From: an uncultured Prevotellaceae bacterium
Lineage (GTDB): Bacteria > Bacteroidota > Bacteroidia > Bacteroidales > Bacteroidaceae
Assembly: GCA_945787625.1 (NCBI GenBank)
Contig: CALZJL010000005.1
Location: 1-24,060, forward strand
Direction: 5' to 3'
Length of the DNA stretch: 24,060 nucleotides
Below are positions 54 to 20,978 of this stretch, in pieces. The stretch's first letter is position 1, and each line of letters begins with the position of its first letter. The position numbers and the translations under genes were made by a program. A model generated the notes under the pieces. It worked only from the letters and a program-made list of their open reading frames with translations, did no database searches and had not been told where the DNA came from.

Positions 54-64
54 GGGGTTGGGGT

Positions 65-6277: not shown

Positions 6278-8431
6278 TCAATCTTTTGTCATGCGTAGTA
6301 CGCAGGCGCTACGGGCTGGCAAATAGAGCTTGAGCCAACCTTTTCCATCACGGGCGAGGTCGCGGTCGTAGATGGTCAGGTGTCTGAGGCTGTCATCGTT
6401 GAATCCCTTGCCTCCATACTTGACGGCATCGGTGTTGAGAAGGTACTCGTATGTGCCTGCCTTGACCATGAAGCCGTAGTCTGTGTAGGAACGTGTCGGA
6501 CTGAAATTGAAGAAGAACAGGAGCTCTCCTCGCTGGTAGGCTAAGACTTGGTCGCCATCATTGTGCCATATCTCGGTGACGTGGGTCTTCTGTATGTCCT
6601 TCTCGCTCTTGAGTATCTTGAGCATGGTTCGGTCGAAGTCGCCGAGGTAATGGAAGCAGAGTTCCTTGTTGTCTACGAGATTCCACTGGCGGCGTGCGTA
6701 CTTGTGGCTCCAACCGTTGCCTTCGCGTGGGAAGTCTATCCATTCGGGATGACCGAACTCGTTGCCCATGAAGTTGAGGTAGCCTCCGTTGATGGTCGAT
6801 GAGGTGACGAGGCGTATCATCTTGTGGAGTGCGATACCGCGCTCTACGGTGTAGTTTTCATCGCCTTTCTTGAAGTGCCAGTACATGTCGGCATCAACAA
6901 GGCGGAAGATGATGGTCTTGTCGCCTACGAGTGCTTGGTCGTGTGACTCGCAGTATGATATGGTCTTCTCATCGGCTCTGCGATTGGTAGTCTCCCAAAG
7001 TATGCTACTGGGCTTCCAGTCTTCGTCGCGCAACTCCTTGATGATTTTTATCCAGTAGTCAGGTATGTTCATGGCCATGCGGTAGTTGAATCCGTAGCCA
7101 CCGGCTTCGAAACTGGCTGCAAGACCTGGCATACCGCTGACTTCTTCGGCTATGGTGATGGCGTTGCGGTTGACTTGGTGTATGAGACAGTTGGCGAGGG
7201 TGAGGTAGACTATGGCATTGTCGTCTTGACTGCCGTTATAGTAGTCACCGTAACCACCAAATGCTTGTCCTAATCCGTGGCTGTAATAGAGCATTGAGGT
7301 GACGCCGTCGAAACGGAAGCCATCGAAATGAAACTCATCAAGCCAGTATTTGCAGTTGGAGAGGAGGAAATGGAGGACTTCGTTCTTGCCGTAGTCAAAG
7401 CACAGGCTGTCCCATGCGGGGTGCTCGCGACGGTCGCCCTGGTAAAAGTATTGACAGGGGTCTCCAGCGATGTTGCCTATGCCTTCCATCTCGTTCTTGA
7501 CGGCGTGTGAGTGTACGATGTCCATAATGACGGCTATACCGAGGCTATGGGCTTCGTCGATGAGGGCTTTGAGCTCTTCGGGGGTACCGAAACGGCTGCT
7601 GGCAGCGAAGAAGTTGCTGACGTGGTATCCGAAGCTGCCGTAGTAGGGATGCTCCTGGATAGCCATTATCTGTATGCAGTTGTAGCCTGCTTTATGTATG
7701 CGTGGCAGGACGTTGTCCTTGAACTCGGTGTATGTGCCTACTTTTTCTGCGTCCTGCCCCATACCGATGTGGCACTCGTAGATGAGGAGCGGACTGGTAT
7801 TGGGCTTGAATTTGCTTACCTTCCACTCGTATGGGGTTTCTGGTTCCCATACTTGAGCTGAGAATATCTTGGTGACATCGTCTTGGACTACGCGTCGCAC
7901 CCATGCTGGTATGCGCTCGCCTTGTCCGCCCTCCCAGTGTACGCTGAGTTTGTAGAGGTCGCCGTGTTTTAGAGCCTGCAGCGGGAGCTTGAGTTCCCAA
8001 TTGCCATTGTCTCCGCGCTTGAAGGCGTAGTGGCCGTCTTCTTTCCATCCATTGAAGTCTCCTATGAGATATATGGCTGTAGCGTTGGGCGCCCACTCAC
8101 GGAGTATCCAGTTCTTGCCTTCTTTGTGTAGTCCAAAGTAGAGGTAGCCTGTGGCGAAGTCTGAGAGGGTCACCTTGCCGTTCTGAGTGAGCTCAGAAAT
8201 CTTGTTGAGGGCAGACTGATGTCGACCATTGATGGCTTCTGCATACTCGGCCAAATACTTGTCATTTTTGATTAGTCGCAAGACTTGTGGCTTGGCAGGT
8301 TCGACGGCTGCTGTTTTCTTGGTGGTCTTCTTAGCAGGAGCCTTCTTTGCTACGGCTTTCTTACTTGTCGCACTGTTTGCTTTCCGGGTGGTCTTGGATG
8401 TCTTTTCGGCATCAGATTTCTTGGTCGCCAT
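6278..8431 (-). CDS. glgB: 1,4-alpha-glucan branching enzyme with a Lys/Ala-rich N-terminal tail
   Basis: Makes alpha-1,6 branches in glycogen (GH13). At 717 residues it is of the eukaryote-like GBE type. Order: a basic low-complexity tail (about 2-48), a CBM48-like domain (about 95-185), the GH13 barrel (about 215-600) and a C-terminal beta domain. Catalytic residues are visible: nucleophile Asp375 in GFRFDGVTSM, acid/base Glu429 in IAEEVSGMP, and Asp498 in SYCESHDQ. The first 48 residues carry repeats such as KKAPAKKTTKKTAA that resemble a histone H1 tail and are not part of the enzyme fold. No other Met occurs before residue 224, so the tail belongs to the reading frame unless a non-ATG start is used. 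It lies 47 bp after the YhcH-family gene and 38 bp before the membrane-protein gene. Confidence 0.95.
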   Translation of the reverse strand: MATKKSDAEKTSKTTRKANSATSKKAVAKKAPAKKTTKKTAAVEPAKPQVLRLIKNDKYLAEYAEAINGRHQSALNKISELTQNGKVTLSDFATGYLYFGLHKEGKNWILREWAPNATAIYLIGDFNGWKEDGHYAFKRGDNGNWELKLPLQALKHGDLYKLSVHWEGGQGERIPAWVRRVVQDDVTKIFSAQVWEPETPYEWKVSKFKPNTSPLLIYECHIGMGQDAEKVGTYTEFKDNVLPRIHKAGYNCIQIMAIQEHPYYGSFGYHVSNFFAASSRFGTPEELKALIDEAHSLGIAVIMDIVHSHAVKNEMEGIGNIAGDPCQYFYQGDRREHPAWDSLCFDYGKNEVLHFLLSNCKYWLDEFHFDGFRFDGVTSMLYYSHGLGQAFGGYGDYYNGSQDDNAIVYLTLANCLIHQVNRNAITIAEEVSGMPGLAASFEAGGYGFNYRMAMNIPDYWIKIIKELRDEDWKPSSILWETTNRRADEKTISYCESHDQALVGDKTIIFRLVDADMYWHFKKGDENYTVERGIALHKMIRLVTSSTINGGYLNFMGNEFGHPEWIDFPREGNGWSHKYARRQWNLVDNKELCFHYLGDFDRTMLKILKSEKDIQKTHVTEIWHNDGDQVLAYQRGELLFFFNFSPTRSYTDYGFMVKAGTYEYLLNTDAVKYGGKGFNDDSLRHLTIYDRDLARDGKGWLKLYLPARSACVLRMTKD

Positions 8432-8478
8432 AATTATCGTTTTGTTTTTGTTGTTTGTCTCTGGATGGGTTGTGGCGG

Positions 8479-8919
8479 TTAAACTTTGACTTTGAATACT
8501 GCTTTTTTTATGCCTTGAGTGGTGATGGCAGGACTGTGTCCTTCGCCGGGGAAGTGTATGGACATCTCCCCTACCCTTACGGTGTAGTATGTGGTGGGGG
8601 TATCGGGGTGGAGACTGCTGTCAGTCTGAGGGTCGTATGACTGTGATGTGAGGACGCTGGCTGGACGATAGCCTTGTATCTCGTCTCCGCTGATGGGGAC
8701 GTGGATATCTATCATCTGACGATGTGCCTCCATTTGGGCTTGATTGTATGCCTTGGGGGCAGTCTGGAATATATTGACACTGACTTGCCCCTCGACGATG
8801 TCGTAATGTCCTAAGGAGAGCTGTGCAAGGTCATGTGTGGAGAGGAATTGTATGACTGTTGCGAAATGGGGATTTATGGCTGTATAAGTGCCTAACTTGT
8901 CGATTGTGTCGTGTATCAT
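8479..8919 (-). CDS. YhcH/YjgK/YiaL (DUF386) family protein
   Basis: A 146-residue cupin-like protein of the YhcH/YjgK/YiaL family, members of which are linked to sugar (sialic acid, xylulose, beta-galactoside) metabolism; the reaction here is not certain. Family marks are the start MIHDTIDKLG, the metal-site-like EAHRQMIDIHV (64-74, the usual ExHxxYIDxQ with Met for Tyr and His for Gln), the GDE at 78-80 and IHFPGEGHSP (121-130) with conserved histidines, then the basic KKAVFKVKV end. Length is normal. It is 39 bp downstream of the MORN gene and 47 bp upstream of glgB, a plausible carbohydrate context. Confidence 0.88.
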   Translation of the reverse strand: MIHDTIDKLGTYTAINPHFATVIQFLSTHDLAQLSLGHYDIVEGQVSVNIFQTAPKAYNQAQMEAHRQMIDIHVPISGDEIQGYRPASVLTSQSYDPQTDSSLHPDTPTTYYTVRVGEMSIHFPGEGHSPAITTQGIKKAVFKVKV

Positions 8920-8958
8920 GAGACTGTCGCGTGATTGTTTGAACTATGGGGTTGTCTA

Positions 8959-10017
8959 TCACTTTACCTTTTCACCCCGTCTGAATTGGCCTTCGTAACG
9001 TCCGTCCTTATCTTCGAGTATGCCGTAGCCTTCTTTGAGTCCGTTTTTGAATCCTCCTCTGTACTTGACGCCGTCGCTTTGATGGAGTGTACCCTGACCT
9101 TCCATCTTGCCCTCGGACCAGTCTCCTTCGTAGACATCACCGTTTGCCCAGGTGTATTTTCCACGACCGTGTTGCTTGTCTTTTTTCCATTGTCCTGTGT
9201 AGGAGGCTCCGTTTTGCCATGTGAATGTACCTTGTCCATCGTACTGCCCGTCGAGGAAATGACCTACATAACGGTCTCCGTTGCTGTACGTAAAAATGCC
9301 TTCGCCTGTACGCTGTCCGTTGAGATATTGGCCTTCGTAACGATTGCCGTCTTGAAAGGTATATATGCCACGACCATGCTGATGGTCATTGGCCCAATCT
9401 CCTGTGTATTTGTCGCCTGAGGAATAGTAAAAGGTGCCTTTACCCCATTTTAAGTTGTCACGCCACTGACCGTCATAGATATTGCCGTTTCCCCAATCAA
9501 AGATGCCTTGACCATTCTTCTTGTCTGCTTTCCAAAGACCTTTGTAGCTCGCTCCGCTCTTGTAGGAATAAGTGCCTTGACCGTCGCGCTTGTCATTGAG
9601 CCAATTGCCGTCGTAGATATCGCCATTGTAGTAGTACATAATGCCGTGACCATGCTGGTAGTCCCGGAACCACAGACCTTCGTAGCGGTTGTTGTTGATG
9701 AAATAGTAGGTACCCCGACCGTGCTGCTGGTTTTGATACCATTCTCCTTCGTAGCGTTCACCATCGGCAAACTGATATACTCCGTAACCTTGGCGCTTGC
9801 CTTTTACGTATTGACCTTCGTGACGATCTCCGTTCTTGAAGACTGTGACTCCTTTGCCGTATGGCTTTGAGCGGAAGAGTTCTCCTTGGTATGATCCTCC
9901 TTCGGGGAATTCGTATGTTCCTATCCTGATCTCCTGAGCCGTAAGCGTAGTGACCATGAGCAAGCTTAAGGGCAAGACGGTCAGTATCTTCGTTGGTATA
10001 GAAAAAATGCGTAACAA
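8959..10017 (-). CDS. Secreted MORN-repeat protein with a TTG start
   Basis: A 352-residue protein that is almost entirely MORN repeats. A signal peptide (about 1-28, cut near TAQ) is followed by 13 repeats of 22-23 residues from Tyr43 (pattern Y-x-G-x-W/F-x7-G-x-G) and a partial 14th at 341-352. MORN arrays form an elongated beta sheet used for binding or scaffolding; the partner is unknown and the export signal implies a periplasmic or envelope location. The start is inferred as TTG (10015-10017): a stop lies in frame 12 nt upstream and the next Met (21) would remove most of the signal peptide. The inferred promoter is about 30 nt upstream. Its coding strand is G-rich, unlike most of its neighbours, which the Gly-rich repeats explain. 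Confidence 0.88.
   Translation of the reverse strand: MLRIFSIPTKILTVLPLSLLMVTTLTAQEIRIGTYEFPEGGSYQGELFRSKPYGKGVTVFKNGDRHEGQYVKGKRQGYGVYQFADGERYEGEWYQNQQHGRGTYYFINNNRYEGLWFRDYQHGHGIMYYYNGDIYDGNWLNDKRDGQGTYSYKSGASYKGLWKADKKNGQGIFDWGNGNIYDGQWRDNLKWGKGTFYYSSGDKYTGDWANDHQHGRGIYTFQDGNRYEGQYLNGQRTGEGIFTYSNGDRYVGHFLDGQYDGQGTFTWQNGASYTGQWKKDKQHGRGKYTWANGDVYEGDWSEGKMEGQGTLHQSDGVKYRGGFKNGLKEGYGILEDKDGRYEGQFRRGEKVK
8962..9891 (-). repeat. Tandem 69-bp-period repeat encoding the MORN array
   Basis: The DNA of the MORN gene is a degenerate tandem repeat with a 69-bp unit (23 codons), 13 units plus a part, one unit being a codon short. The plus strand repeatedly shows forms such as ccttcgtaacg and ccttcgtagcg at the unit boundaries. 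Units have diverged at the nucleotide level, so the array looks old rather than recently expanded. Confidence 0.85.
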
Positions 10018-10043
10018 TGCTTGACTATTTTACTGTTCGCAAG

Positions 10044-10074
10044 CAAAGTTACGCAAATTTATCTTAAATTCAAA
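10044..10074 (-). promoter_or_regulatory. Bacteroidota-type promoter upstream of the MORN-to-OmpP1 block
   Basis: On the minus strand TTTG (10071-10074) is followed after exactly 19 nt by TAACTTTG (10044-10051), a full match to the Bacteroidota -33/-7 pattern. Transcription would start about 7 nt further on, leaving a leader of about 20 nt before the TTG start of the MORN gene. It is the only clear promoter seen for the eight genes that follow. Confidence 0.85.
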
Positions 10075-10136
10075 ATGTGTTTAGGCTTTAATGCGTTCTT
10101 TTTTGTTTTTTTTTGCTTTTATGCCACGAAATCCTC
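10075..10136. other. Intergenic stretch after the penicillin-binding protein gene
   Basis: Between the stop of the penicillin-binding protein and the MORN promoter there is a T-rich run on the plus strand (about 10097-10120), which is A-rich in the direction of transcription. No stem precedes a T run on the minus strand, so I see no intrinsic terminator for the pyrBI-PBP unit. Two near-identical 10-mers (GCATAAAAGC and GCATTAAAGC on the minus strand) flank the A-rich run; this may be chance. Confidence 0.4.
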
Positions 10137-12467
10137 TTATATTGGGACATTTGCGTTCGATGTCGTGGAGGGTGTTGTCGCGGTACTATCTGTCTGGGCA
10201 GCCTTGGCATCATACTGGGCTCCTTGTGGTGCCTGAAACGTCTCGTCCGGACTGTAGCCGAGGGTAGGAATGGCGTAAACACGTTTGAGGAACTTGGCGG
10301 CTATGGGTAGTGCGGCAGCGGCTCCTTGACCGTATGACATGGAAGCGAAGTGCACGTCGCGCTCATCGCCGCCGACCCATGCCCCATAAGCGAGACTGGG
10401 CGTGTAGCCCACGAACCATCCGTCGGTATTGTCGTTGGTGGTACCTGTCTTGCCAGCCATCTCAGACTTGATATTGTAGCGGTTGCGCATCCTGGCTCCT
10501 GTGCCTGAGTTGATGACGCCTTGCATCAAGGATACCATTTTCCATGCTGCATCGGGGCTTAGGACATTGTGTATGTCGGGATGAAATTCTGCTATGATAT
10601 TGCCTTCGTTGTCTTCAATCCGTGTAACAAAGCGCGGAGCACGTCGCATGCCTCCCATGGGGAATGCTGTATATGCGCTAACCATCTCAAGTACACTGAT
10701 TTCAGCTGCACCAAGACAGATGGACATGGTAGCTGGGATTCTGTTGTTGCGAACGCCAAACTCGTGTATGAGCGTAACGAGCATCTCGGGATCGAGTTGA
10801 TTCATGAGCCACGCGGATATCCAGTTGTTGGACTGGGCAAGCCCCCAACGGAGTGTTACCATCTCTCCGATGCGTGACTTGCCAGAATTGCGCGGTGTCC
10901 AGGTCTGGTTGCCTATATGATAGGTCTGCTGGACGTTGGGGGCAAGGTCGTCGGGGGTAAATCCGTTGTCCATGGCAAGGGCGTAGAGGAAGGGCTTGAT
11001 GGTGGAACCTACTTGACGGCGTCCCTGACCAGCCATGTCGTAACGGAAATGGGTGTAGTCCACTCCTCCGACGTAGGCTTTGACATCGCCTGTCATAGTC
11101 TCCATGCAGACAAAGCCTGCGTGGAGGTAGCCTTTATAGTAGCGTATGGAGTCGAGTGGGCTCATGATGGTGTCTTTGTCGCCATGCGGGCTATAGACTG
11201 TCATCTCGATTTTTTCGTTGAAGAACTGCTCTATTTCTTGATCTGTGTGGCCGTTTTTCTTCATCATGACATAGCGCTCGCTTTGCCGCTTGGCTCTCTC
11301 TATATCGTTTGCGACCTGACGAGCACTGAGCCCACGATAGTACGGGCGGTTAGGATTGCCTACTTGCTCGCGCTCGAATGCCGGCTGGAGGTAGCCTGTG
11401 ACGTGCTCGTAGACGCTATGCTCTGCGGCTTCCTGCATACGGCTGTCAAGGGTGCTGTATATCTTGAGACCATCGGTATAAAGGTTGTAGGGACGTCCCT
11501 CACGGTTGAGATTTTTATTGCACCAGCCGTAGAGGGGGTCTTGCTCCCATGCGAGCGAATCCTCATAGTATTTCTGGCCCTGCCATGAGGCGTAGTCTGA
11601 CCGCACAGGTCTCTTGGCCATGAGGACTTGACGCAGATACTCGCGGAAGTAGGTGCCGATGCCGCTCTTGTGGTCAACACGATGGAAGTTGAGCGTCAGT
11701 GGTATGGCTTTAATGCTGTCAGACTGTGCGGTGGTGAGGTAGCCTGACCTGAGCATCTGGTCAATGACCACGTTGCGACGCTGCTGAGCCCTCTCGGGCG
11801 AACGAACTGGATTGAAATAGGAGGGATTCTTACACATACCGACGAGGGTGGCAGCCTCTTCGACAGTGAGGTTGTAGGGGTCTTTGTTGAAGTATGTACG
11901 TGATGCAGTCTTGATGCCCACGGCATTGTGCAGAAAGTCGAAATAGTTGAGATAGAGAGTGATTATTTCTTCCTTCGTATAATAGCGTTCAAGTTCGAGG
12001 GCTATCATCCACTCTATCGGCTTCTGCATGAGACGCTCCATAGTGCTCTCGGCGCGTTCGCTATATAGCTGCTTTGCAAGCTGTTGCGTGATGGTCGATC
12101 CTCCTCCAGCATTTTTCTGGCCTAATATACCTCGCTTGATGATGGCTCGCATGAGGGCTTTGACATCAATGCCCGAGTGCTCGTAAAAGCGTTCGTCTTC
12201 GGTGGCAATTAGTGCATTGATGAGGTCGGGCGAAATGGAGTCATACTCGGTAAAGATTCGATTGGTGGCACCATAACTATATGTACCGACAAGCTTGCCG
12301 TCTGCGCTGATTACTTGGCTGGCAAACTTATCCACTGGATTGGATAACTGCTGCATCTCGGGCATATAGCCGACGTATCCCGATCCTATGGATAGGAGTA
12401 TGCCGATTGAGGCTATGATGCCACAGACGAGCAGCACCCACATGGTGATGATTATCTTTTTTTTCAT
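10137..12467 (-). CDS. Class A penicillin-binding protein (PBP1A-type glycosyltransferase/transpeptidase)
   Basis: A 776-residue bifunctional peptidoglycan synthase anchored by one N-terminal helix (about 4-26). The GT51 glycosyltransferase domain shows ATEDERFYEHSGID with catalytic Glu90, GGSTITQQLAKQLYS (122-136) and the amphipathic region near EWMIALELERYYTKEEI (152-168). The transpeptidase domain has all three motifs: SxxK at Ser488-Lys491 (GSTIKPF), SxN at Ser546-Asn548 and KTGT at 673-676. It ends in a Thr/Ser-rich tail. It polymerises glycan strands and cross-links stem peptides on the outer face of the inner membrane and is a beta-lactam target. The gene begins 25 bp after pyrI with no clear promoter of its own, so it is probably cotranscribed with pyrBI. 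Confidence 0.95.
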   Translation of the reverse strand: MKKKIIITMWVLLVCGIIASIGILLSIGSGYVGYMPEMQQLSNPVDKFASQVISADGKLVGTYSYGATNRIFTEYDSISPDLINALIATEDERFYEHSGIDVKALMRAIIKRGILGQKNAGGGSTITQQLAKQLYSERAESTMERLMQKPIEWMIALELERYYTKEEIITLYLNYFDFLHNAVGIKTASRTYFNKDPYNLTVEEAATLVGMCKNPSYFNPVRSPERAQQRRNVVIDQMLRSGYLTTAQSDSIKAIPLTLNFHRVDHKSGIGTYFREYLRQVLMAKRPVRSDYASWQGQKYYEDSLAWEQDPLYGWCNKNLNREGRPYNLYTDGLKIYSTLDSRMQEAAEHSVYEHVTGYLQPAFEREQVGNPNRPYYRGLSARQVANDIERAKRQSERYVMMKKNGHTDQEIEQFFNEKIEMTVYSPHGDKDTIMSPLDSIRYYKGYLHAGFVCMETMTGDVKAYVGGVDYTHFRYDMAGQGRRQVGSTIKPFLYALAMDNGFTPDDLAPNVQQTYHIGNQTWTPRNSGKSRIGEMVTLRWGLAQSNNWISAWLMNQLDPEMLVTLIHEFGVRNNRIPATMSICLGAAEISVLEMVSAYTAFPMGGMRRAPRFVTRIEDNEGNIIAEFHPDIHNVLSPDAAWKMVSLMQGVINSGTGARMRNRYNIKSEMAGKTGTTNDNTDGWFVGYTPSLAYGAWVGGDERDVHFASMSYGQGAAAALPIAAKFLKRVYAIPTLGYSPDETFQAPQGAQYDAKAAQTDSTATTPSTTSNANVPI

Positions 12468-12492
12468 TGTACGCTTTTATTGCTATGGGGGG

Positions 12493-12945
12493 TCATTCCA
12501 CCACCTTTACTTCCGCTCTGGGTACGTCCTTATTGCAATAGCAGCAGCGTAGGTAGCCCTTGTGCACTTCGCGGAAACGAGTGTTCATAGGTTCGTTGTT
12601 GGTAATGCACTTGAGATTGGGACAACGCACTATGCCTACGAGTTCGTCCGGCATCTGTACAGTACGTTTTTCTACGACTTGATAGTTGCGTATGATACAG
12701 AGCGAGACGTTGGGGGCTACAGCAGAGAGTTGGTTGAGTTCTTCATCGGTAAAGAAGCGGTCTGCTATCTTGATTATACTTTTGCTACCCATGTGGGCAC
12801 TCTTGAGGTTGTAACCAATTGTGACAGCCGACTTGCTCTGGCTGAGGTGAAGCATATTGACGATGTCAAAAAGGCGTTCGTTTGGGATATGGTCTATGAC
12901 TGTGCCGTTCTCAATAGCGGCCACAAGAAGTTTCTTGTCTTCCAT
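12493..12945 (-). CDS. pyrI: Aspartate carbamoyltransferase regulatory chain
   Basis: A 150-residue regulatory subunit that binds nucleotides and tunes the PyrB catalytic trimers in pyrimidine synthesis. The N-terminal allosteric part has AAIENGTVIDHI (9-20) and VTIGYN (41-46). The C-terminal zinc part has Cys108-x4-Cys113 and Cys134-x2-Cys137, the four ligands that hold the regulatory and catalytic chains together. Length matches the family. It follows pyrB with a 75-bp gap in which I see neither a terminator nor a Bacteroidota-type promoter. Confidence 0.97.
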   Translation of the reverse strand: MEDKKLLVAAIENGTVIDHIPNERLFDIVNMLHLSQSKSAVTIGYNLKSAHMGSKSIIKIADRFFTDEELNQLSAVAPNVSLCIIRNYQVVEKRTVQMPDELVGIVRCPNLKCITNNEPMNTRFREVHKGYLRCCYCNKDVPRAEVKVVE

Positions 12946-13020
12946 CTTTGAAATAAGATATTTTAGTCGTTAGTCTGTTATATAGGCTATGGTGGGCGGT
13001 GATACGTTGAATGGGACGAA

Positions 13021-13956
13021 CTATTGAGCTTGTCTTATCTGGTCGAGTGTGATACCCAAGACATCGCATATCAGAGCCTGACGGGCATAAAGTCCGTTTT
13101 GGGCTTGACGGAAATAGTACGCATACTTGGTATCATCGATGCTGTACTCTATCTCATTGACGCGAGGCAGAGGGTGAAGAATTTTCATGTTGTCACGAGA
13201 CTTGACAAGCATGTCCTTTTTCAGGAGATAGCGGTCTTTGACTCGCTCATATTCATCGAGGTCTGCGAAGCGTTCTTTCTGAACTCTGGTCATATAAAGA
13301 ATATCTGCATCGCTGATAGTATCAGCATCGAAATCCTTGTGTTCTACGTAGGAAATGCCATGCTCGTCGCAGTAGTTCTTGTAGACATCAGGCATGGCTA
13401 GCTCGTCAGGTGAGATGAAGTGGAAGGTGGGATTGAAGTGGCGCATGGCCATGAGGAGGGAGTGGACGGTACGTCCATACTTAAGGTCGCCGACCATATA
13501 GATATTGAGGTTGTCGAGCGTCCCCTGAGTCTGATATATCGTGTACAGGTCGAGCATCGTCTGTGACGGGTGTTGATTTGCCCCGTCTCCAGCATTCATA
13601 ATGGGCACAGGGGCTATTTCGCTGGCGTACTGTGCCGCCCCTTCGAGATAATGCCGCATGATGATAACGTCAGCATAGTTGCTGACCATCATGATGGTGT
13701 CCTTGAGTGTCTCACCCTTGGTGCCGCTGGTCACCTTAGGGTCGGCAAAACCTATGACCCGGGCTCCAAGACGATTGGCGGCTGTCTCAAAACTGAGACG
13801 GGTGCGAGTGGAAGGCTCGAAAAAAAGGGTCGCCACTACCCTACCGTCAAGAATCTTACGGTTAGGCTGACGCTCAAACTCTTGAGCCATCTGTATCAGA
13901 TACTCGATTTTCTCTCTCGAATGACCAGCTATGGTCACCAGACTTTTTTGCTTCAT
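13021..13956 (-). CDS. pyrB: Aspartate carbamoyltransferase catalytic chain
   Basis: A 311-residue enzyme that condenses carbamoyl phosphate and aspartate to N-carbamoyl-aspartate, the first committed step of pyrimidine synthesis. It carries the carbamoyl-phosphate loop [15 protein letters not shown], a [10 protein letters not shown] segment and the HPLPRVNEI segment that binds the aspartate side. The ATG at 13954-13956 gives the normal start [14 protein letters not shown] longer frame is open to 13998, but those codons would run into the -7 promoter element, so the shorter start is right. The neighbouring pyrI encodes the regulatory chain, giving the E. coli-like catalytic/regulatory holoenzyme. 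Confidence 0.97.
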
Positions 13957-13985
13957 AGTATGTCGTGCGCGATGTTTGTATGTCA

Positions 13986-13993
13986 CAAAGATA
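13986..13993 (-). promoter_or_regulatory. Putative -7 element of the pyrB promoter
   Basis: The minus strand reads TATCTTTG, matching TAnnTTTG, about 30 nt before the pyrB ATG. No TTTG is found at the correct distance upstream, so the -33 part is weak. The position supports the short pyrB start. Confidence 0.5.
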
Positions 13994-14101
13994 ACCATTT
14001 TTTTGCTTTGTATATCACTTAGAGGAAGTCTTATTTTTATTATTTATGGTATTTTGTCGAAAAAATATGGTCAAAATATCCCAAATATGTAATAATTATA
14101 A

Positions 14102-14109
14102 TAAATTTG
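14102..14109 (+). promoter_or_regulatory. Putative -7 element of the glyA promoter
   Basis: TAAATTTG matches TAnnTTTG and lies about 52 nt before the glyA ATG, inside the 205-bp AT-rich divergent region shared with pyrB. There is no clear TTTG 19-20 nt upstream, so this is a half-match. Confidence 0.45.
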
Positions 14110-14161
14110 CGCACTCTACAATTTATAGCGACATCTACAGACACAATAAAACATTTATTAT

Positions 14162-15433
14162 ATGGAACAGGTTTTTGACCTTATCAACGAAGAGCGTGCG
14201 CGCCAGATGCGTGGCATAGAGCTCATCGCAAGTGAAAATTTCGTATCAGACCAAGTGATGCAGGCCATGGGTAGCGTGCTGACCAATAAATACGCCGAAG
14301 GATACCCTGGCAAGCGTTATTATGGTGGCTGCCAAGTCGTGGACAAGGTAGAGGAGTTGGCTATCGAGCGTGTGTGCAAGCTCTTTGGTGCCGAGTATGC
14401 CAATGTACAGCCTCACTCTGGTGCACAGGCCAATGCAGCCGTATTCTTGGCTGTACTTAATCCTGGTGATACCTTCATGGGGCTCAACCTCGACCACGGA
14501 GGTCACCTCAGCCATGGTTCGCTGGTCAACACATCGGGCATAATCTACAGACCTGTCGGATATAATCTCAACAAAGAGACCGGCCGTGTGGATTACGACG
14601 AGATGGAACGTCTGGCCCTTGAGCACAAGCCAAAGATGATCATAGGCGGAGGCAGCGCATATTCTCGCGAATGGGACTACAAGCGCATGCGCAAGATTGC
14701 AGACGAGGTGGGAGCTATCCTCATGATTGACATGGCTCACCCCGCAGGTCTTATCGCAGCAGGATTGCTCGACAATCCAGTAAAATACGCACATATCGTC
14801 ACCTCTACTACCCACAAGACCCTGCGCGGTCCGCGCGGCGGCATCATTCTGATGGGAAAGGACTTTCCTAACCCCTGGGGCAAGACTACGCCAAAGGGAG
14901 AAATAAAGATGATGTCGGCCCTGCTCAACAGTGCCGTATTCCCAGGCATTCAGGGCGGTCCGCTCGAGCATGTGATAGCAGCCAAAGCAGTAGCCTTTGG
15001 AGAGTGTCTCAGGCCAGAATGGAAGGAGTATGCCATGCAGGTCAAGAATAATGCAGCCCGTCTTGCAGACGAATTGATGAAGCGCGGCTTTTATATAGTA
15101 AGTGGCGGCACCGACAATCACTCCATGCTTGTCGACCTACGCACCAAATATCCCGACCTGACGGGCAAGGTAGCAGAAAAGGCATTGGTAGCAGCAGATA
15201 TTACCGCCAACAAGAACATGGTACCCTTTGATAGCCGTTCGGCCTTCCAAACTTCGGGCATACGTCTCGGTACTCCCGCCATCACAACCCGTGGAGCCAA
15301 AGAAGATCTGATGATCAAGATTGCAGCCTTCATCGAACGCGTCCTCGATGATCCCGAAAACGAAGAAAACATCGCAGCTGTACGTAAGGAAGTCAATGCT
15401 ATCATGGCAGACTACCCCCTGTTTGCCTGGTAA
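14162..15433 (+). CDS. glyA: Serine hydroxymethyltransferase
   Basis: A 423-residue PLP enzyme that converts serine plus tetrahydrofolate to glycine plus methylene-tetrahydrofolate, the main one-carbon source. Family marks are [12 protein letters not shown] (19-30), [14 protein letters not shown] (43-56), HSGAQAN (85-91), DMAHPAGL (190-197) and the PLP lysine in [13 protein letters not shown] (Lys219). The start is a few residues shorter at the N-terminus than some homologues but reaches the conserved region. It is the only protein gene on the plus strand, runs divergent from pyrB and ends at a strong hairpin shared with the S1/P1 nuclease gene. G and C are nearly balanced along it, at the point where the strand bias reverses. 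Confidence 0.97.
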
Positions 15434-15463
15434 TAATCCAAATCGGGAATAACAGGATAAGAC

Positions 15464-15502
15464 AAGCCCCTCAAGAGTACCACACCGACTCTTGAGGGGC
15501 TT
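15464..15502. terminator. Bidirectional hairpin between glyA and the S1/P1 nuclease gene
   Basis: A perfect 15-bp inverted repeat (15464-15478 with 15488-15502) encloses a 9-nt loop. It starts AAGCCCCTC and ends GAGGGGCTT, giving a very stable stem flanked by A/T. It lies 30 bp after the glyA stop and 29 bp after the nuclease stop on the opposite strand, so it probably ends both converging transcripts. Confidence 0.88.
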
Positions 15503-15531
15503 ATATATAGTACGTCTATGCGAGAATGATC

Positions 15532-16350
15532 CTACTCCTCAGTTTCATTCTGAGCCGTTATTTCGTTAATCAACATAGCCAAACGGCACCCAGCCTTGTG
15601 AAGCTGCTGTTCCAAAGCAGGAGTCCACTGTGCCACCCAATCGTACGAGAGCGACGAACCCTGCGGAGTCGTAGTATAGATATCACGAGCTACCCGATGC
15701 GTCTCCAACGCCCAATCAGCAGGAGAGCCCTGGGCATATATACGATACAGGTCAAAACGATTGCCGTTCTCCTCGATGACAGGACTGTCTATCTCCTTTG
15801 CCCACTCAGTATAACTCCAGGCGTGAGCACTCTCCACCAGTCTCGTATCCCACACCGTATGCAGGTCAGTCGTGGCCCCGAAATACACCACAGGATACTC
15901 GTTGCCACCACGGTCACTACGATGCCCGACATGCATAGGCTGGTGAATATCACCCACGAGGTGAACGAGCATACGCAGAGCCACCTGACGCTCAGTACGC
16001 GTAGAAAGCTCGGATTTGAGCACCTCCACCTGATGCTCTATAGCCCATACGATATGAGTACTGTCAGTTCTGGCAGACGTGATGACCGAGTCAGCATTCT
16101 CCCCATCGTCAACATTAACGTAGTGCCAAGTGAGAGTATTGGCATAATGAGAGGAGTGGCTGGCATTGTCCATCCAGTTAGCCCAATACATGAGACTTTT
16201 CCCCTCAAAGAGATTGCGTACCATCTCGCGCGACTCTCGGGTCAGATGAAGGGTAGCCACAGCAGCCGTAACATCGTGTCCCTTCTGCCCCCACCCATAT
16301 ACGTCGTGGCAAAAAGCCATGACAAGTATGAACGTCGACATTATTCTCAT
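15532..16350 (-). CDS. Secreted S1/P1-type nuclease
   Basis: A 272-residue zinc nuclease that cuts single-stranded DNA or RNA and can remove 3' phosphates. A signal peptide ends just before Trp20, which becomes the mature N-terminus and a zinc ligand in this family. All nine expected ligands are visible: Trp20, His25, Asp61, His76, His130, Asp134, His140, His164 and Asp168, in segments such as GWGQKGH, WMD, WHYVNVDD, HLVGDIHQPMH and DLHTVWD. It should be a three-zinc enzyme acting in the periplasm or outside the cell, probably for nucleotide or phosphate scavenging. Its ATG overlaps the serB stop by four bases (ATGA), so translation is likely coupled. Confidence 0.93.
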   Translation of the reverse strand: MRIMSTFILVMAFCHDVYGWGQKGHDVTAAVATLHLTRESREMVRNLFEGKSLMYWANWMDNASHSSHYANTLTWHYVNVDDGENADSVITSARTDSTHIVWAIEHQVEVLKSELSTRTERQVALRMLVHLVGDIHQPMHVGHRSDRGGNEYPVVYFGATTDLHTVWDTRLVESAHAWSYTEWAKEIDSPVIEENGNRFDLYRIYAQGSPADWALETHRVARDIYTTTPQGSSLSYDWVAQWTPALEQQLHKAGCRLAMLINEITAQNETEE

Positions 16351-17564
16351 AGGTCAAGGTAACTATCTTTAAAACCAAGGAAATACAATACGCCATCGAG
16401 ACCAATCGTATTGATAGACTGACGCGCATTGGCCACTACCCTCGGCTTGGCATGAAAGGCAATGCCGAGACCAGCAAGCGAAATCATAGGCAAATCATTA
16501 GCACCGTCCCCCACAGCAATAGTCTGCTCAAGGTCGACCTTCTCCACCTGAGCTATGAGACGCAGCAGTTCAGCCTTACGATGCCCATCGACAATTTCCC
16601 CCACATAGTTGCCCGTAAGCTTGCCGTCCGGCCCCACCTCAAGCTCGTTAGCATACACATAGTCTATGCCGAACTTACGCTGTATGTACTCACCGAAATA
16701 CGTAAATCCACCGCTGAGGATAGCTATCTTATAGCCATATTTCTTGAGGACAGACATCATGCGCTCCACACCCTCGGTGAAAGGGAGGTGCTCAGCAATA
16801 TCCTTCATGACGCTGACATCAAGCCCCTTGAGCATCTGACAACGGCGAGCAAACGACTCCTTGAAATCAATCTCGCCACGCATGGCAGACTCAGTAATAG
16901 CCGCGACCTGCTCATAGACCCCATGACGGCGAGCAAGCTCATCAATCACCTCAGTCTGAATAAGCGTAGAGTCCATATCGAAACAGATGAGCCTACGCAT
17001 ACGCCTATACATATTGTCGAGCTGGAAACTACAATCAATGTTCATCTCCGAACTGAGACTAAGCAAGTCAGCCTGAAGCTCGCCCCTGTCGCGGGGAGTG
17101 CCACGCAGCGAGAACTGAATGCAAGCCTTCATCCTCTCAGCAGGACGGACTATACTCTGACGTCCCGTCAGACGATTGATAGCATCTATATTGAGACCCT
17201 GCTCAGTAATCACCCTAGAGACAGCCTCAATCTGACGCGCTTCGAGTCGTCTGCCCAACACAGTCAAGATATAGCGGTTCTTACCCTGACGCGACACCCA
17301 CGCCTCGTACTGTTCGAGAGTGATAGGCTTGAAACGAATGTTCTCACCGAGCTCACTCGTCGTAAAAAGCAAATCCTTCATCATCGAGCCAGAGTGCTGC
17401 TCAGCCACACGCACGAGAATACCGAGACTCAACGTACTGTGTATGCCAGCCTGACCGATATCCTGGATATGCACATCGTAGCGCGCCAACACCCCCATGA
17501 GCCTGGCGACAATGCCCTCCCTATCCTGCCCCGTTATCTGTATGAGAATAATTTCTTCGTCCAT
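16347..17564 (-). CDS. serB: Phosphoserine phosphatase with ACT-like N-terminal regulatory half
   Basis: Catalyses the last step of serine synthesis, phosphoserine to serine. At 405 residues it has an N-terminal part of about 185 residues with an ACT domain near 5-75 (ITGQDREGIVARLM) and a second ACT-like stretch near 97-170. A HAD phosphatase domain follows: motif I CFDMDSTLIQTEVIDEL with Asp196 and Asp198, motif II LSGGF (283-287), Lys330 and motif IV VGDGANDLPM with Asp353. The ACT part suggests amino-acid feedback. It starts 9 bp after gdhA and overlaps the nuclease gene by 4 bp. Confidence 0.95.
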   Translation of the reverse strand: MDEEIILIQITGQDREGIVARLMGVLARYDVHIQDIGQAGIHSTLSLGILVRVAEQHSGSMMKDLLFTTSELGENIRFKPITLEQYEAWVSRQGKNRYILTVLGRRLEARQIEAVSRVITEQGLNIDAINRLTGRQSIVRPAERMKACIQFSLRGTPRDRGELQADLLSLSSEMNIDCSFQLDNMYRRMRRLICFDMDSTLIQTEVIDELARRHGVYEQVAAITESAMRGEIDFKESFARRCQMLKGLDVSVMKDIAEHLPFTEGVERMMSVLKKYGYKIAILSGGFTYFGEYIQRKFGIDYVYANELEVGPDGKLTGNYVGEIVDGHRKAELLRLIAQVEKVDLEQTIAVGDGANDLPMISLAGLGIAFHAKPRVVANARQSINTIGLDGVLYFLGFKDSYLDL

Positions 17565-17573
17565 AAATATACA

Positions 17574-18914
17574 TTATACTATACCCTGCGCCATCATCGC
17601 CTTAGCCACCTTCATGAAACCAGCGATATTGGCACCCTTGACATAGTTGATATACCCATCAGCCTCACGACCATGCTCCACACACTGCGAATGAATACCA
17701 TGCATAATTTCGTGCAAACGCTCGTCCACGTCCTTAGCACTCCAAGAGATATGCATAGCATTCTGGCTCATCTCAAGTCCGCTCGTAGCCACCCCACCAG
17801 CATTGACAGCCTTACCAGGAGCGTAGAGCATCTTATTGCCTACAAACAGCTCGATAGCCTCAGGCGTACAGCCCATATTGCTAATCTCACCAACACACAG
17901 CACCCCATTCTCACAGAGACGACGCGCATCATCACCATCGAGTTCATTCTGCGTAGCACACGGCAAAGCAATATCAACCTTCTGCTCCCACGGACGACGA
18001 TTAGGGAAGAACGTAGCAGAACCAAACACCTCAGCATACGGCGCCACGACATCATTACCGCTGGCACGCAATTCGAGCATATAATCAATCTTGTCGCCAC
18101 AGATACCCTCAGGATCATAGACATACCCATCAGGACCACTGATAGTGACAACCTTAGCCCCCAGCTGAGTAGCCTTGGTAGCAGCACCCCAAGCAACATT
18201 GCCAAAACCACTTATAGCAACCGTCTTCCCCTTGATATCAAGCCCCGCAGTCTGCAACATCTCGTTCACGAAATACAAGCCGCCAAACCCCGTAGCCTCA
18301 GGCCTCACGAGCGAGCCACCCCACTCCAAGCCCTTGCCAGTAAGTACACCACTGAAATCACGAGTGAGACGCTTGTACTGCCCGAAGAGATAGCCAATCT
18401 CACGCGCCCCGACCCCGATATCACCCGCAGGCACATCAATTTCAGGCCCAATATGACGAAACAGCTCACTCATGAAAGACTGGCAGAAACGCATTATCTC
18501 AGCATCGCTCTTGCCGCGCGGAGAGAAGTCAGACCCACCCTTACCCCCACCCATAGGGAGAGTCGTCAGCGCATTTTTGAACGTCTGTTCAAAGCCCAGA
18601 AACTTGAGAATACTCAGATTCACACTCGAATGAAAACGCAAGCCCCCCTTGTAAGGGCCGATGGCACTATTATACTGCACACGATAGCCAAGATTGACCT
18701 GCACCCTACCACTATCATCAACCCAAGGCACCCTAAAAGTGATGATACGCTCCGGCTCGACAAGACGCTCAATCAGCGAAGCACGCTCAAACTCAGGGTG
18801 CCTGTCGTAAACATCCTTAATACTGATAAGAACCTCATGCACAGCCTGCAGATACTCCTTCTCGCCAGGATGCCTAGCCTCCAACGAGCTCATAATTTTT
18901 GCGATGTCCATCAT
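17574..18914 (-). CDS. gdhA: Glutamate dehydrogenase (hexameric, probably NADP-dependent)
   Basis: Reversibly aminates 2-oxoglutarate to glutamate. The 446-residue length fits the small hexameric class. Visible are GPYKGGLRFH with substrate Lys89, LPMGGGKGGSDFSP with catalytic Lys125, VPAGDIGVG with Asp165 and the dinucleotide fold ISGFGNVAWG (234-243). The cofactor assignment follows from overall similarity to NADP-type enzymes and is less sure. Two Met open the frame (MMDIAK); either could start. It is the first gene of a tight unit with serB and the nuclease gene, and a good promoter precedes it. Glutamate is the amino donor for phosphoserine formation, which fits its pairing with serB. 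Confidence 0.96.
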   Translation of the reverse strand: MMDIAKIMSSLEARHPGEKEYLQAVHEVLISIKDVYDRHPEFERASLIERLVEPERIITFRVPWVDDSGRVQVNLGYRVQYNSAIGPYKGGLRFHSSVNLSILKFLGFEQTFKNALTTLPMGGGKGGSDFSPRGKSDAEIMRFCQSFMSELFRHIGPEIDVPAGDIGVGAREIGYLFGQYKRLTRDFSGVLTGKGLEWGGSLVRPEATGFGGLYFVNEMLQTAGLDIKGKTVAISGFGNVAWGAATKATQLGAKVVTISGPDGYVYDPEGICGDKIDYMLELRASGNDVVAPYAEVFGSATFFPNRRPWEQKVDIALPCATQNELDGDDARRLCENGVLCVGEISNMGCTPEAIELFVGNKMLYAPGKAVNAGGVATSGLEMSQNAMHISWSAKDVDERLHEIMHGIHSQCVEHGREADGYINYVKGANIAGFMKVAKAMMAQGIV

Positions 18915-18945
18915 AATCGTGACTATTTTTAAGTTATTGGCGACC

Positions 18946-18976
18946 CTAAATTACAATTATTTCACCACACGGCAAA
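18946..18976 (-). promoter_or_regulatory. Promoter of the gdhA-serB-nuclease unit
   Basis: Minus-strand TTTG (18973-18976), a 19-nt spacer and TAATTTAG (18946-18953), one base off TAnnTTTG. The leader would be about 25 nt. It lies just downstream of the terminator of the metallopeptidase gene. Confidence 0.7.
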
Positions 18977-18984
18977 ACAAAATT

Positions 18985-19023
18985 GCAAAATAAAACGGCT
19001 CGCAGCAACGTTCTGCAAGCCGT
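18985..19023 (-). terminator. Rho-independent terminator of the M6 metallopeptidase gene
   Basis: Inverted repeat 18995-19005 with 19013-19023 (ACGGCT...AGCCGT outer arms, one internal mismatch, 7-nt loop). Read on the minus strand it is followed by TTTTATTTTG. It starts 25 bp after the metallopeptidase stop. Confidence 0.85.
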
Positions 19024-19047
19024 ATATATCAAAATCGGACAAAAAAC

Positions 19048-20721
19048 TCAAAAGCCTATTTCGACCCTACCCCTACCCGTTTTGCAATCACGCAAGATGA
19101 AAAGCCCACGCCCAGAGGCAGCATTGACACGTTGACCAGCCACATTGTACACCACACACTCCCCACGAGCAGAATCCACGATATCCCCCACAGAAGTATC
19201 ATCATCACCCCCACCCATAAATTTAAACGAGATCGTATTATCATCATTCCTCACAATCTCAGTAATAGACTTATGCATCAGCAGTTCCCCATCAGAATTA
19301 GGATTGTACAACACAGCAGCAGGAGCCACACGATCCCCCTCACTACGAGCCTCATCAGTCAGAGCATTGTTGCCCCGAATCCCAAAAAACTCAATCACAT
19401 TAATCTCACCATCCTTGATATCCCTGCTCGTAAACGTATCCCTCAGAGGCCAAAAGTGACCAGCGAGCTCGCTGTAATACCTACGCTTCTCCTCAGCAGT
19501 AAACGAACTCCCCGACTTGAAATTGTCAAGCAATTCAAAATGCCCATTAGCAGGAACGATCGTAATACGCTGACGAGCAGGATCCACATTGACCATATTG
19601 CTACTCCACGCCCCCTCGTCCTCATCAATATGGTAAATCATCAGACCATCACCATACCTGTCACACAACGGCTTGTGCATCACATCACCCCCCACCCCAG
19701 CATAAGTACGATTTTCAAGAATATAATACTCCCCCCTGTCAGCCTCATTATAAACGACATACGCATCACCCCCAGCAGCGACAGACCTCAACGACGTCAC
19801 AGTCACAGGCTCCGTCAGCTCCTTCAGCGTAATCCAGCCAAAATAACTCTTCTCATAAGCCGTAAAAGCCGTAGGGCTAAAGCCCCCATTGACATACTCC
19901 CCATAGTCCATCAAGCTCCACACGTCCATACCAGGAGCCACATACCCACGCCCATTATTATCATACATATCAGGCAGCCCCAACATGTGCGACATCTCAT
20001 GCACACACACACCGATACCATTAAACACCCCCGTCTGCAGCAACTCCGGCACAAGCAGCTGCGTAGCATACGTCACCCCCCCAACACTCGCGGACACGTC
20101 CCAACAGCAAGCATGAGGCCCCGCTCCCCCCGTATTAGCCCCATCACCAGCAAAGACCACGATAACCCCATCGACCTTGCCATCGCCATCAGAATCAAAA
20201 TCCCCCACCCTATCCACAATCTGAGGAGCCAGAGCCGTCAGCGCAGCATTACGGAAGCCAGCCCTATTATTTTTCGCCGCCGCCCGCGTCATATTGACAG
20301 ACACCGGATTCAAGATATTGAAATGAGGAGTAAACAACCCCCTACTATTCTTCTCGAAATACTCATAGACAGAAAAAGCATTATGACCAATCTGCCCCAG
20401 CACATTCCGTCCGTTAAAGAACTTCTCAAACAAATCCTTCAACTCGCCCTCACTCGCAGCGACAGTCATTTCAGCATCACTAAAATTCGCAAGACACACC
20501 ACAATCTCAGGCGTCCCCATAGCCTTGAGAGCAGCATCCTTATGATTCAGCTTCACCCTCATCATATCCGAAGCCCCCATCGCCTCCCCATCACGCACGA
20601 CACAAGCCTCCCTCCTGACCCTCTGACGAAAATCCAAATCATCCTCCCCCCACACACCATCAGACTGCGCCCAAGCAGGCAAAGAAGCCAACAAAGCAGA
20701 CAAAATCAAAAAACCTTTCAT
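19048..20721 (-). CDS. Secreted M6-family (immune inhibitor A-like) zinc metallopeptidase
   Basis: A 557-residue exported peptidase. The ATG at 20721 starts a clear signal peptide (about 1-19, ending AWA before QSDG); the frame is open 14 codons further, but those overlap the promoter. The zinc site HEMSHMLGLPD gives His241, Glu242, His245 and Asp251, the M6 pattern HExxHxxGxxD. Upstream, DFDSDGDGKVDG (174-185) looks like an EF-hand calcium loop, and GDGANTGGAGPHACC (192-206) follows. The last 34 residues (VYNVAGQRV ... GRGLFILRD) resemble short C-terminal segments common on exported Bacteroidetes proteins; whether this is a sorting signal is unknown. It is a single-gene unit with its own promoter and terminator. 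Confidence 0.88.
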   Translation of the reverse strand: MKGFLILSALLASLPAWAQSDGVWGEDDLDFRQRVRREACVVRDGEAMGASDMMRVKLNHKDAALKAMGTPEIVVCLANFSDAEMTVAASEGELKDLFEKFFNGRNVLGQIGHNAFSVYEYFEKNSRGLFTPHFNILNPVSVNMTRAAAKNNRAGFRNAALTALAPQIVDRVGDFDSDGDGKVDGVIVVFAGDGANTGGAGPHACCWDVSASVGGVTYATQLLVPELLQTGVFNGIGVCVHEMSHMLGLPDMYDNNGRGYVAPGMDVWSLMDYGEYVNGGFSPTAFTAYEKSYFGWITLKELTEPVTVTSLRSVAAGGDAYVVYNEADRGEYYILENRTYAGVGGDVMHKPLCDRYGDGLMIYHIDEDEGAWSSNMVNVDPARQRITIVPANGHFELLDNFKSGSSFTAEEKRRYYSELAGHFWPLRDTFTSRDIKDGEINVIEFFGIRGNNALTDEARSEGDRVAPAAVLYNPNSDGELLMHKSITEIVRNDDNTISFKFMGGGDDDTSVGDIVDSARGECVVYNVAGQRVNAASGRGLFILRDCKTGRGRVEIGF

Positions 20722-20751
20722 ACGACACACAATAATTAGAACTATAGAGCG

Positions 20752-20783
20752 CGAAGTTAGCATTTTTTTCCGTCACAGGCAAA
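20752..20783 (-). promoter_or_regulatory. Promoter of the M6 metallopeptidase gene
   Basis: Minus-strand TTTG (20780-20783), a 20-nt spacer, then TAACTTCG (20752-20759), one base off TAnnTTTG. It is back to back with the tRNA-Ala promoter; the two -33 elements are only 17 bp apart. Confidence 0.7.
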
Positions 20784-20800
20784 AAAACTTCCCAAAAGAT

Positions 20801-20831
20801 TTTGTTATTTCGTCAAAACACCATAACTTTG
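20801..20831 (+). promoter_or_regulatory. Consensus Bacteroidota promoter of tRNA-Ala
   Basis: TTTG (20801-20804), 19 nt, TAACTTTG (20824-20831). This is a perfect match to the Bacteroidota pattern, about 20 nt before the mature tRNA. Confidence 0.88.
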
Positions 20832-20851
20832 CACCGCAAACCAAGCAAAAC

Positions 20852-20925
<74 letters not shown>

Positions 20926-20929
20926 CAAG

Positions 20930-20964
20930 AAAGAAGCAGTTCGAATCAACGAGCTGCTTCTTTT
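20930..20964. terminator. Bidirectional terminator between tRNA-Ala and malQ
   Basis: A 14-bp stem (20930-20943 with 20950-20963, one G-T pair) with a 6-nt loop. The arms run AAAGAAGCAG... and ...CTGCTTCTTT, so each strand ends in a T-rich side. It lies 4 bp after tRNA-Ala and 15 bp after the malQ stop and can serve both. Confidence 0.88.
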
Positions 20965-20978
20965 CATACCATATTGAC

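What the first reader, a model, noticed from the sequence alone, without database searches (positions are those of the whole stretch)
13000..16000. Reversal of strand composition: probable replication terminus
Hand counts of G versus C on the plus strand in single 60-base lines give: from 301, 20/11; 2881, 25/6; 5401, 28/10; 7561, 23/12; 11401, 18/16; 13081, 16/11; 14701, 17/17; 15301, 13/15; 16021, 12/18; 18301, 11/24; 19921, 7/23; 22861, 7/24. The excess changes sign once, near glyA, and grows with distance on both sides. Leading strands are usually G-rich, so G-rich to C-rich in the 5'->3' direction marks fork convergence; an origin would show the opposite. The smooth weakening towards the middle would fit a zone of termination rather than one fixed point. 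The gene-strand bias fits: minus-strand genes on the right would be leading-strand, while those on the left would be lagging-strand.
Basis: partly seen in the sequence, partly recalled or inferred. Interest (0 to 1): 0.72.

Follow-up and report, generated by a model that had tools for sequence, protein, structure and literature searches.

The report
Many fork-meeting zones in bacterial genome
The strand-composition switch in this window is real, but a close relative shows such switches every few tens of kilobases, as if these bacteria copy their DNA from many starting points instead of the usual one, which would be new for bacteria and now needs a laboratory test.

Summary
The reversal is real: cumulative G-C peaks at 15,108, and synonymous-site skew slides from strongly positive to strongly negative across 24 kb, with the polarity of converging forks. 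It is very probably not the chromosome terminus. In the only close relative held (draft genome G001, 83-85% DNA identity, same reversal), 24 such crossings lie in 910 kb, and 62 of 75 contigs start more G/T-rich than they end. The pattern is a saw-tooth: gradual falls, abrupt rises. Ten strong rises sit at gaps between genes. Sister genome G002 shows 0 falling and 1 rising crossing in 400 kb; G051, from the sister clade, shows a weaker saw-tooth.

Bidirectional replication from many closely spaced origins with dispersed termination would leave this signature (compare human skew N-domains). I know of no demonstrated case in a bacterium. The window then is one termination zone among dozens. What marks the origins is unknown: no shared motif or DnaA boxes at the rises, and both RNases H are present. 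No replication data exist, G001 is fragmentary, and the window's own genome is not held. Many small replicons or another bidirectional strand-biased process remain possible; an inversion mosaic fits poorly.

The parts
1..11500 (.). Left arm: plus strand G- and T-rich; read as mostly rightward forks
   Evidence: GC skew mostly +0.1 to +0.4; third-position GC skew +0.76 to +0.33 in the genes here
11500..17000 (.). Zone of sign change; read as the zone where converging forks most often meet
   Evidence: Fitted zero crossings 11.6 kb (T/A) and 13.1 kb (G/C) with gene strand as covariate; cumulative maxima at 14,057 and 15,108
17000..24060 (.). Right arm: plus strand C- and A-rich; read as mostly leftward forks
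   Evidence: GC skew -0.19 to -0.43; third-position GC skew -0.32 to -0.68 and TA skew -0.85 to -0.93 in gdhA, M6 protease and malQ
65..139 (-). tRNA-Gly (ccc)
   Evidence: ARAGORN
1781..2629 (-). prmA, ribosomal protein L11 methyltransferase
   Evidence: NCBIfam NF001785, 281 bits
6278..8431 (-). glgB-like 1,4-alpha-glucan branching enzyme
   Evidence: NCBIfam best 279.6 bits, below that model's cut-off of 577; 89% DNA identity in G001
10137..12467 (-). PBP1A-family penicillin-binding protein, used to find relatives and for the tree
   Evidence: NCBIfam TIGR02074, 482 bits, cut-off 509
12493..12945 (-). pyrI, aspartate carbamoyltransferase regulatory subunit
   Evidence: TIGR00240, 146.9 bits, cut-off 148.55
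13021..13956 (-). pyrB, aspartate carbamoyltransferase
   Evidence: TIGR00670, 357.6 bits
14162..15433 (+). glyA, serine hydroxymethyltransferase; the only called protein gene on the plus strand
   Evidence: NF000586, 620 bits; gene calls
16347..17564 (-). serB, phosphoserine phosphatase
   Evidence: TIGR00338, 257.8 bits
17574..18914 (-). gdhA, glutamate dehydrogenase
   Evidence: NF010633, 886 bits
20852..20926 (+). tRNA-Ala (ggc)
   Evidence: ARAGORN
20979..23669 (-). malQ-like 4-alpha-glucanotransferase
   Evidence: TIGR00217, 219.9 bits, cut-off 205.65

Best explanation
The window is one interval between initiation sites in a genome (Prevotellaceae, going by the titles of its nearest relatives) that is copied bidirectionally from many closely spaced sites. 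Forks enter from beyond both ends and meet at variable points, so the share of rightward forks, and with it the G/T excess of the plus strand, falls across the window. Shown: the reversal, its gradual course, its conservation in G001, and a genome-wide saw-tooth in G001 with gradual falls and abrupt rises at gaps between genes. Inferred: that the saw-tooth records fork direction, that rises are origins, and a spacing of very roughly 20-25 kb (from the median slope of -0.043 R per kb, and rises of about 0.4-1.0). Unknown: the initiator, and what marks an origin.
For: 62 of 75 G001 contigs have higher keto skew in the first 2 kb than in the last 2 kb (two-sided binomial p 8e-9; contigs 7-10 were cut at 20 kb and contig 11 is partial). 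Strand-corrected crossings with 0.15 hysteresis: G001 24 falling and 5 rising in 910 kb; G051 4 and 3 in 114 kb; G002 0 and 1 in 400 kb. Mean change of R between adjacent genes -0.049 in G001, 0.000 in G002. R jumps at single gaps between genes and 700-bp bins next to the gaps mostly keep the level of their side. Steps over all 1405 positions: 69% negative, but 14 above +0.5 against 6 below -0.5. GC4 and TA4 skew rise and fall together in G001 (r 0.77, 723 genes), in seven other genomes not (-0.48 to +0.01). TA4 is nearly independent of gene strand (means +0.07 and -0.11), so transcription is not the cause. Two contigs speak for several sites on one molecule: C1 (34.6 kb) has rises at about 5.6 kb (weak, +0.23) and 20.8 kb (+0.41), and C10 falls, rises at 8.8-9.1 kb and falls again. 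In the PBP1A tree window+G001 group with G051+G041+G046 (94/87) and the ordinary G002+G003 lie just outside.
Against: No replication measurement exists. G001 is a fragmentary draft (20 of 60 E. coli markers found in the 75 contigs held; largest contig 34.6 kb). The ten rises were picked for size; C50 does not change sign across its gap, and in C16 the last left bin is already shifted. G041, in the same clade, shows 0 crossings in 69 kb and its contig C7 is flat. Two genomes outside the clade also show one falling crossing each (G081 in 51 kb, G140 in 41 kb) and the set G032/G033/G036/G123 one rising crossing in 80 kb. In gene blocks shared by G051 and G001 the slope can agree while the level differs, or the sign is opposite, so positions are not all conserved. 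No shared motif was found at the rises. In the window a single step fits T/A slightly better than a slope. Only the window itself, one interval, is known for this species.
Confidence: 0.55

Rival explanations
1. Another process that spreads both ways from fixed sites and treats the two strands differently, such as double-strand-break hot spots with end resection, or replication started by recombination at such hot spots, causes the saw-tooth without regular origins.
For: No DnaA boxes and no common 8-mer at the ten rises; a hairpin stem of 12 bp or more at 7 of 10 rises against 34 of 257 other gaps of at least 75 bp, which could be fragile sites, though also just terminators.
Against: If deamination of exposed single strands drives the bias (established chemistry, argued and not tested here), resection would make the plus strand keto-rich left of a break and keto-poor right of it, the opposite of what is seen; lagging-template exposure in outgoing forks gives the observed sign.
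Confidence: 0.17
2. The genome is split into many small replicons of a few tens of kilobases, each with one origin and one terminus zone.
For: No G001 contig held exceeds 34.6 kb, and contigs tend to end near rises, as small circles cut at their origin would.
Against: C1 and C10 of G001 carry two falls separated by a rise; G051 has a 52-kb contig with two falls and a rise between them, and 40 kb of a 60-kb contig with the same; contigs are linked by exact 55-bp overlaps.
Confidence: 0.15
3. The window holds the single replication terminus of an ordinary one-origin chromosome.
For: Correct polarity, one sign change in 24 kb, gradual course.
Against: 24 crossings of the same kind in 910 kb of the relative; no convincing dif-like site (weak test).
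Confidence: 0.05
4. An ordinary one-origin genome with extreme skew was broken up by many inversions.
For: Gene order differs between G051 and G001 outside some blocks; Prevotella intermedia strains differ by many rearrangements (PMC4755523, passages).
Against: Inversions give equally sharp switches both ways and no preferred order along contigs; here 62 of 75 contigs decline, falls are spread over many genes and rises are abrupt.
Confidence: 0.05

Closest known systems
Skew N-domains and fork-polarity gradients of human chromosomes (PMC3320577, PMC4729899: abstract beginnings seen in the listing; the shape of N-domains is recalled)
   Same: Abrupt skew rise at initiation borders, gradual fall between them, dispersed termination
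   Different: Megabase-sized, in a eukaryote; here about 20-30 kb, in a bacterium, with much stronger skew
Multi-origin archaeal chromosomes such as Sulfolobus (PMC3269012, passages)
   Same: Several skew polarity changes on one chromosome explained by several origins
   Different: Three origins in the Sulfolobus species named there; here at least 24 falling crossings in 910 kb, and bacterial
Bacteria proposed to have more than one origin: Wigglesworthia, Wolbachia, Synechocystis, Mycoplasma pulmonis (Xia 2012, PMC3269012, passages); paired DnaA-box clusters in DoriC genomes (Gao 2015, PMC4403523, part 1 of 2 read)
   Same: Skew used as evidence for extra origins in bacteria
   Different: A few irregular polarity changes or two oriC-like loci next to replication genes; here a regular saw-tooth, rises without DnaA boxes, and ordinary sister genomes as controls
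oriK / constitutive stable replication of E. coli rnhA mutants (listing and abstract beginnings)
   Same: Initiation away from oriC, possibly without DnaA
   Different: Needs loss of RNase HI; RNase HI-type and RNase HII genes are found in G001, G041, G046 and G051
Prevotella intermedia two-chromosome genome (PMC4755523, passages)
   Same: Related bacteria with unusual replicon organisation; no clear GC-skew transition in the second chromosome
   Different: First chromosome has one clear origin-like and one clear terminus-like transition

Membership tests
Single chromosomal terminus | One G-to-C crossing per chromosome | tested here: not met
   24 falling crossings in 910 kb of G001; tested in the relative, not in the window's own genome
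Single chromosomal terminus | dif site with XerC/XerD arms near the crossing | tested here: inconclusive
   11 matches with up to 2 mismatches to a recalled generic pattern (chance mean 4.46); the two with 1 mismatch lie in pbp1A and pyrB; the 28-bp palindrome at 14082-14109 differs from L001 at 4 positions and overlaps a promoter-like site before glyA
Replicon with many bidirectional origins (N-domain-like) | Recurrent gradual falls and abrupt rises of strand skew | tested here: met
   with the exceptions listed under evidence against
Replicon with many bidirectional origins (N-domain-like) | Several origins on one DNA molecule | tested here: inconclusive
   Two falls with a rise between on C1 and C10 of G001 and on contigs of G051; no long contig in G001
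Replicon with many bidirectional origins (N-domain-like) | Replication starts at the rises | not testable with these tools
   No reads or growing cells available
DnaA/oriC-type origins | DnaA-box clusters at the rises | tested here: not met
   0 boxes (up to 1 mismatch to a recalled E. coli box) in ten gaps with 100-bp flanks, about 4 kb, where about 1 was expected from 0.28 per kb in 326 other gaps; a weak test, but no clusters
DnaA/oriC-type origins | dnaA present | tested here: inconclusive
   PF00308 once each in G002, G003, G041, G046, G051; none in G001, which is too incomplete to count
R-loop (oriK) replication through loss of RNase H | RNase HI and HII absent | tested here: not met
   PF01351 and PF00075 matches in G001, G041, G046 and G051

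The most novel reading that the evidence does not exclude
A clade of Prevotellaceae copies its chromosome from dozens of intergenic origins without DnaA-box clusters, very roughly 20-30 kb apart, with stochastic fork meeting between them: a eukaryote-like replication plan that arose after the split from ordinary one-origin sister species.
Probability: 0.45. Interest if true: 0.97.

Novelty: categorically new. Interest (0 to 1): 0.85.

Why it matters
One origin per bacterial chromosome is treated as a rule; [quoted passage not shown] A clade with a regular, very strong saw-tooth beside ordinary sister species would show that the rule can be broken, on which branch it broke, and where to look for the initiator. 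It would also affect methods that read growth rate or check assemblies from skew and coverage on the assumption of one origin.

Tried and rejected
dif search with a recalled generic pattern and the palindrome at 14082-14109: nothing convincing. Repeated hairpin-plus-promoter element of G001 as the origin (47 core matches with up to 2 mismatches in 910 kb): it lies at the C21 rise and near the C45 rise but also at many other places; mean change of R across 37 measurable copies +0.01 against a background of -0.13. GGTT/AACC arrays as origins: one at the C16 rise, most others at contig ends, where they may only break the assembly. DnaA boxes and 6- to 8-mer enrichment, RNase H loss: not supported. 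Orientation of genes at rises (5 >>, 4 convergent, 1 <<, 0 divergent) was not used, because the coding-strand C preference can imitate a rise at convergent genes. Raw keto skew as a marker in other genomes: G130 and G140 look toothed in raw skew but not after gene-strand correction. First PBP1A tree used wrong frames for several rows and was redone. Plasmid collection: 40 records match, and the 20 listed all match only at the tRNA-Ala gene. Rows left out: loci under 9 kb; three G046 contigs that read only N; the C45 rise (+0.41) from the list of ten, because its gap holds an rnpA match and is not truly intergenic. Literature: five searches for bacterial multi-origin replication or Prevotella skew and two on N-domains (none found; 78) listed no report of this pattern that I recognised; only the passages named above were read, and most subscription papers are not in the library.
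Full report
WHAT IS THERE. GC skew declines across the 24 kb from about +0.3/+0.4 to about -0.4 and changes sign near 14.5-15 kb. Cumulative G-C peaks at 15,108 and T-A at 14,057; 0 of 10,000 block shuffles reach the observed CUSUM range. Of 17 genes measured, 16 lie on the minus strand, on both sides of the switch, so gene orientation is not the cause. Genes were named with NCBIfam; four of 18 proteins (223-1752, 5145-6239, 8959-9957, 15532-16350) had no model at the E-values used, several others fall below the curated cut-offs, and 'MORN' and 'S1/P1 nuclease' for two of them are recalled.

THE RELATIVE. No whole genome is held for the window. A PBP1A scan of the genome collection confirmed 203 loci and kept 80. 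The best, L001 (93% protein identity, titled uncultured Prevotellaceae bacterium), is syntenic at 83-85% DNA identity and shows the same reversal. Its genome G001 belongs to a genus with 139 genomes in the collection; 92 of these match glgB at the strict E-value set, G001 at 89% identity and the rest at 78% or less. I read 75 contigs of G001, 909,787 bases.

THE SURPRISE. Most G001 contigs repeat the window's pattern: keto skew (G+T minus A+C) falls along the contig and in places jumps back up. 62 of 75 start higher than they end. The standard deviation of 2-kb keto skew is 0.154 in G001 and 0.225 in the window, against 0.036-0.085 in seven other genomes of the genus, two of them (G041, G051) from the clade discussed below.

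GENE-LEVEL TEST. Because extreme skew makes long antisense ORFs, genes were called with a dipeptide model trained on other relatives. At fourfold sites the coding strand prefers C over G (mean GC4 -0.28), while TA4 hardly depends on gene strand. The strand-corrected mean, R, falls by 0.049 per gene over 519 adjacent pairs and rises sharply at a few gaps: C16 14414-14606, C36 1607-1752, C4 13207-13592, C21 1098-1236, C33 951-1026, C6 11117-11310, C10 8844-9091, C17 5792-5892, C50 3769-4027, C1 20833-21148. In 700-bp bins most of these show full levels directly on both sides; C16 is partly shifted in its last left bin and C50 stays negative on both sides. The largest 1.5-kb step has a median of 0.70 at these ten rises, which were chosen for size, and 0.37 at 24 falls, 23 in G001 and one in the window. 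Over all 1405 positions of G001 69% of steps are negative, yet strong steps are more often rises (14 above +0.5, 6 below -0.5). Under a strict threshold 24 falls but only 5 rises count as crossings; I take this to mean that contigs tend to end near rises. Genes are only mildly co-directional with the inferred forks (211 against 151).

WHO HAS IT. GC4 and TA4 move together in G001 (r 0.77), the window (0.88, 18 genes), G051 (0.58, and 0.50 with more contigs) and less surely G041 (0.41, 0.54 and 0.30). In seven other genomes the correlation is -0.48 to +0.01, and in single stretches of G032, G036, G033 and G123 it is -0.31 to -0.48. In G002 R is mostly positive over the first 220 kb of a 263-kb contig, an ordinary replichore. 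In G051 R runs from about +0.4 to -0.3, rises near 16.8 kb, reaches +0.5 and falls to about -0.3 by 46 kb. The PBP1A tree (24 rows) joins window+G001 (100/100) to G051+G041+G046 (100/100) with support 94/87, and G002+G003 join next, the seven together at 100/100. It is one gene. G041 shows no crossing in 69 kb, and the G046 contigs fetched read only N. A gene block shared by G051 and G001 keeps its slope at a different level, and another has the opposite sign, so the positions of strong sites have changed.

HOW IT MOST LIKELY WORKS. The saw-tooth looks the same from either strand, so it needs a process that spreads both ways from the rises regardless of gene direction. Bidirectional forks with dispersed meeting points do this, and a G- and T-rich leading strand is the usual bacterial sign (general knowledge). 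In the window, forks from beyond both ends would meet mostly around 11-17 kb. Shown: composition. Inferred: forks, origins, spacing of very roughly 20-25 kb, and dozens of sites per genome. The initiator is unknown. DnaA occurs once in G002, G003, G041, G046 and G051 and was not found in G001, but only 20 of 60 E. coli marker proteins were found in the G001 contigs held, so that absence says nothing. The rises have no DnaA boxes and no shared 8-mer. They have more strong hairpins than other gaps (7 of 10 against 34 of 257; 15 of 42 among convergent gaps), which transcription terminators may explain. RNase HI-type and HII genes are present.

RIVALS. One terminus: contradicted by the relative. 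Many small replicons: disfavoured by several teeth on single contigs of G001 and G051, not excluded. Inversions: should give equally sharp switches both ways. Resection at break hot spots: wrong sign if deamination of exposed strands is the cause. Transcription: TA4 does not follow gene strand.

COMPARISON. It works like human skew N-domains and multi-origin archaea; as a multi-origin replicon it meets the sequence feature, while initiation itself is untested. Xia 2012 (PMC3269012, passages) and Gao 2015 (PMC4403523, part 1) raised multi-origin bacteria; both warn that skew alone is not proof, and that warning applies here. New here are the number and regularity of the teeth, the contrast of gradual falls and sharp rises, and the ordinary sister genomes.

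Noticed in passing
window 16452-18932 (+) and 20880-23636 (+): Open frames of 826 and 918 aa lie antisense to real genes; probably shadows of the extreme skew at third positions, and a trap for gene finders.
   Followed up: partly
window 23838-24041 (-): 67-aa HipB/Y4mF-like antitoxin-type HTH protein, below the family's curated cut-off (57 against 71.65 bits); a partner would lie beyond the window.
   Followed up: no
L113, L115, L121, L129, L130 and other G001 contigs (e.g. C3:16298, C21:1185, C37:8294): Repeated element of a hairpin followed by a Bacteroidetes-type promoter core TTATTCGTAACTTTG: 47 core matches with up to 2 mismatches in 910 kb of G001, none in the window.
   Followed up: partly
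G001 C5:23167-23392, C16:14547-14571, C30:2-58, C44:8784-8824, C58:7465-7529, C73:89-113: Intergenic GGTT/AACC arrays, in C5 and C16 arranged as inverted halves; 16 array matches in 910 kb of G001, 2 in 400 kb of G002, none in the window.
   Followed up: partly
G001 contig ends, e.g. C1/C23, C14/C8, C36/C18: Exact 55-bp overlaps between contig ends look like assembly-graph neighbours, so the draft might be chained further from its original graph.
   Followed up: no
window 14082-14109: 28-bp imperfect AT-rich palindrome just before glyA; 4 differences from L001 and overlap with a promoter-like site, so not a likely dif.
   Followed up: partly
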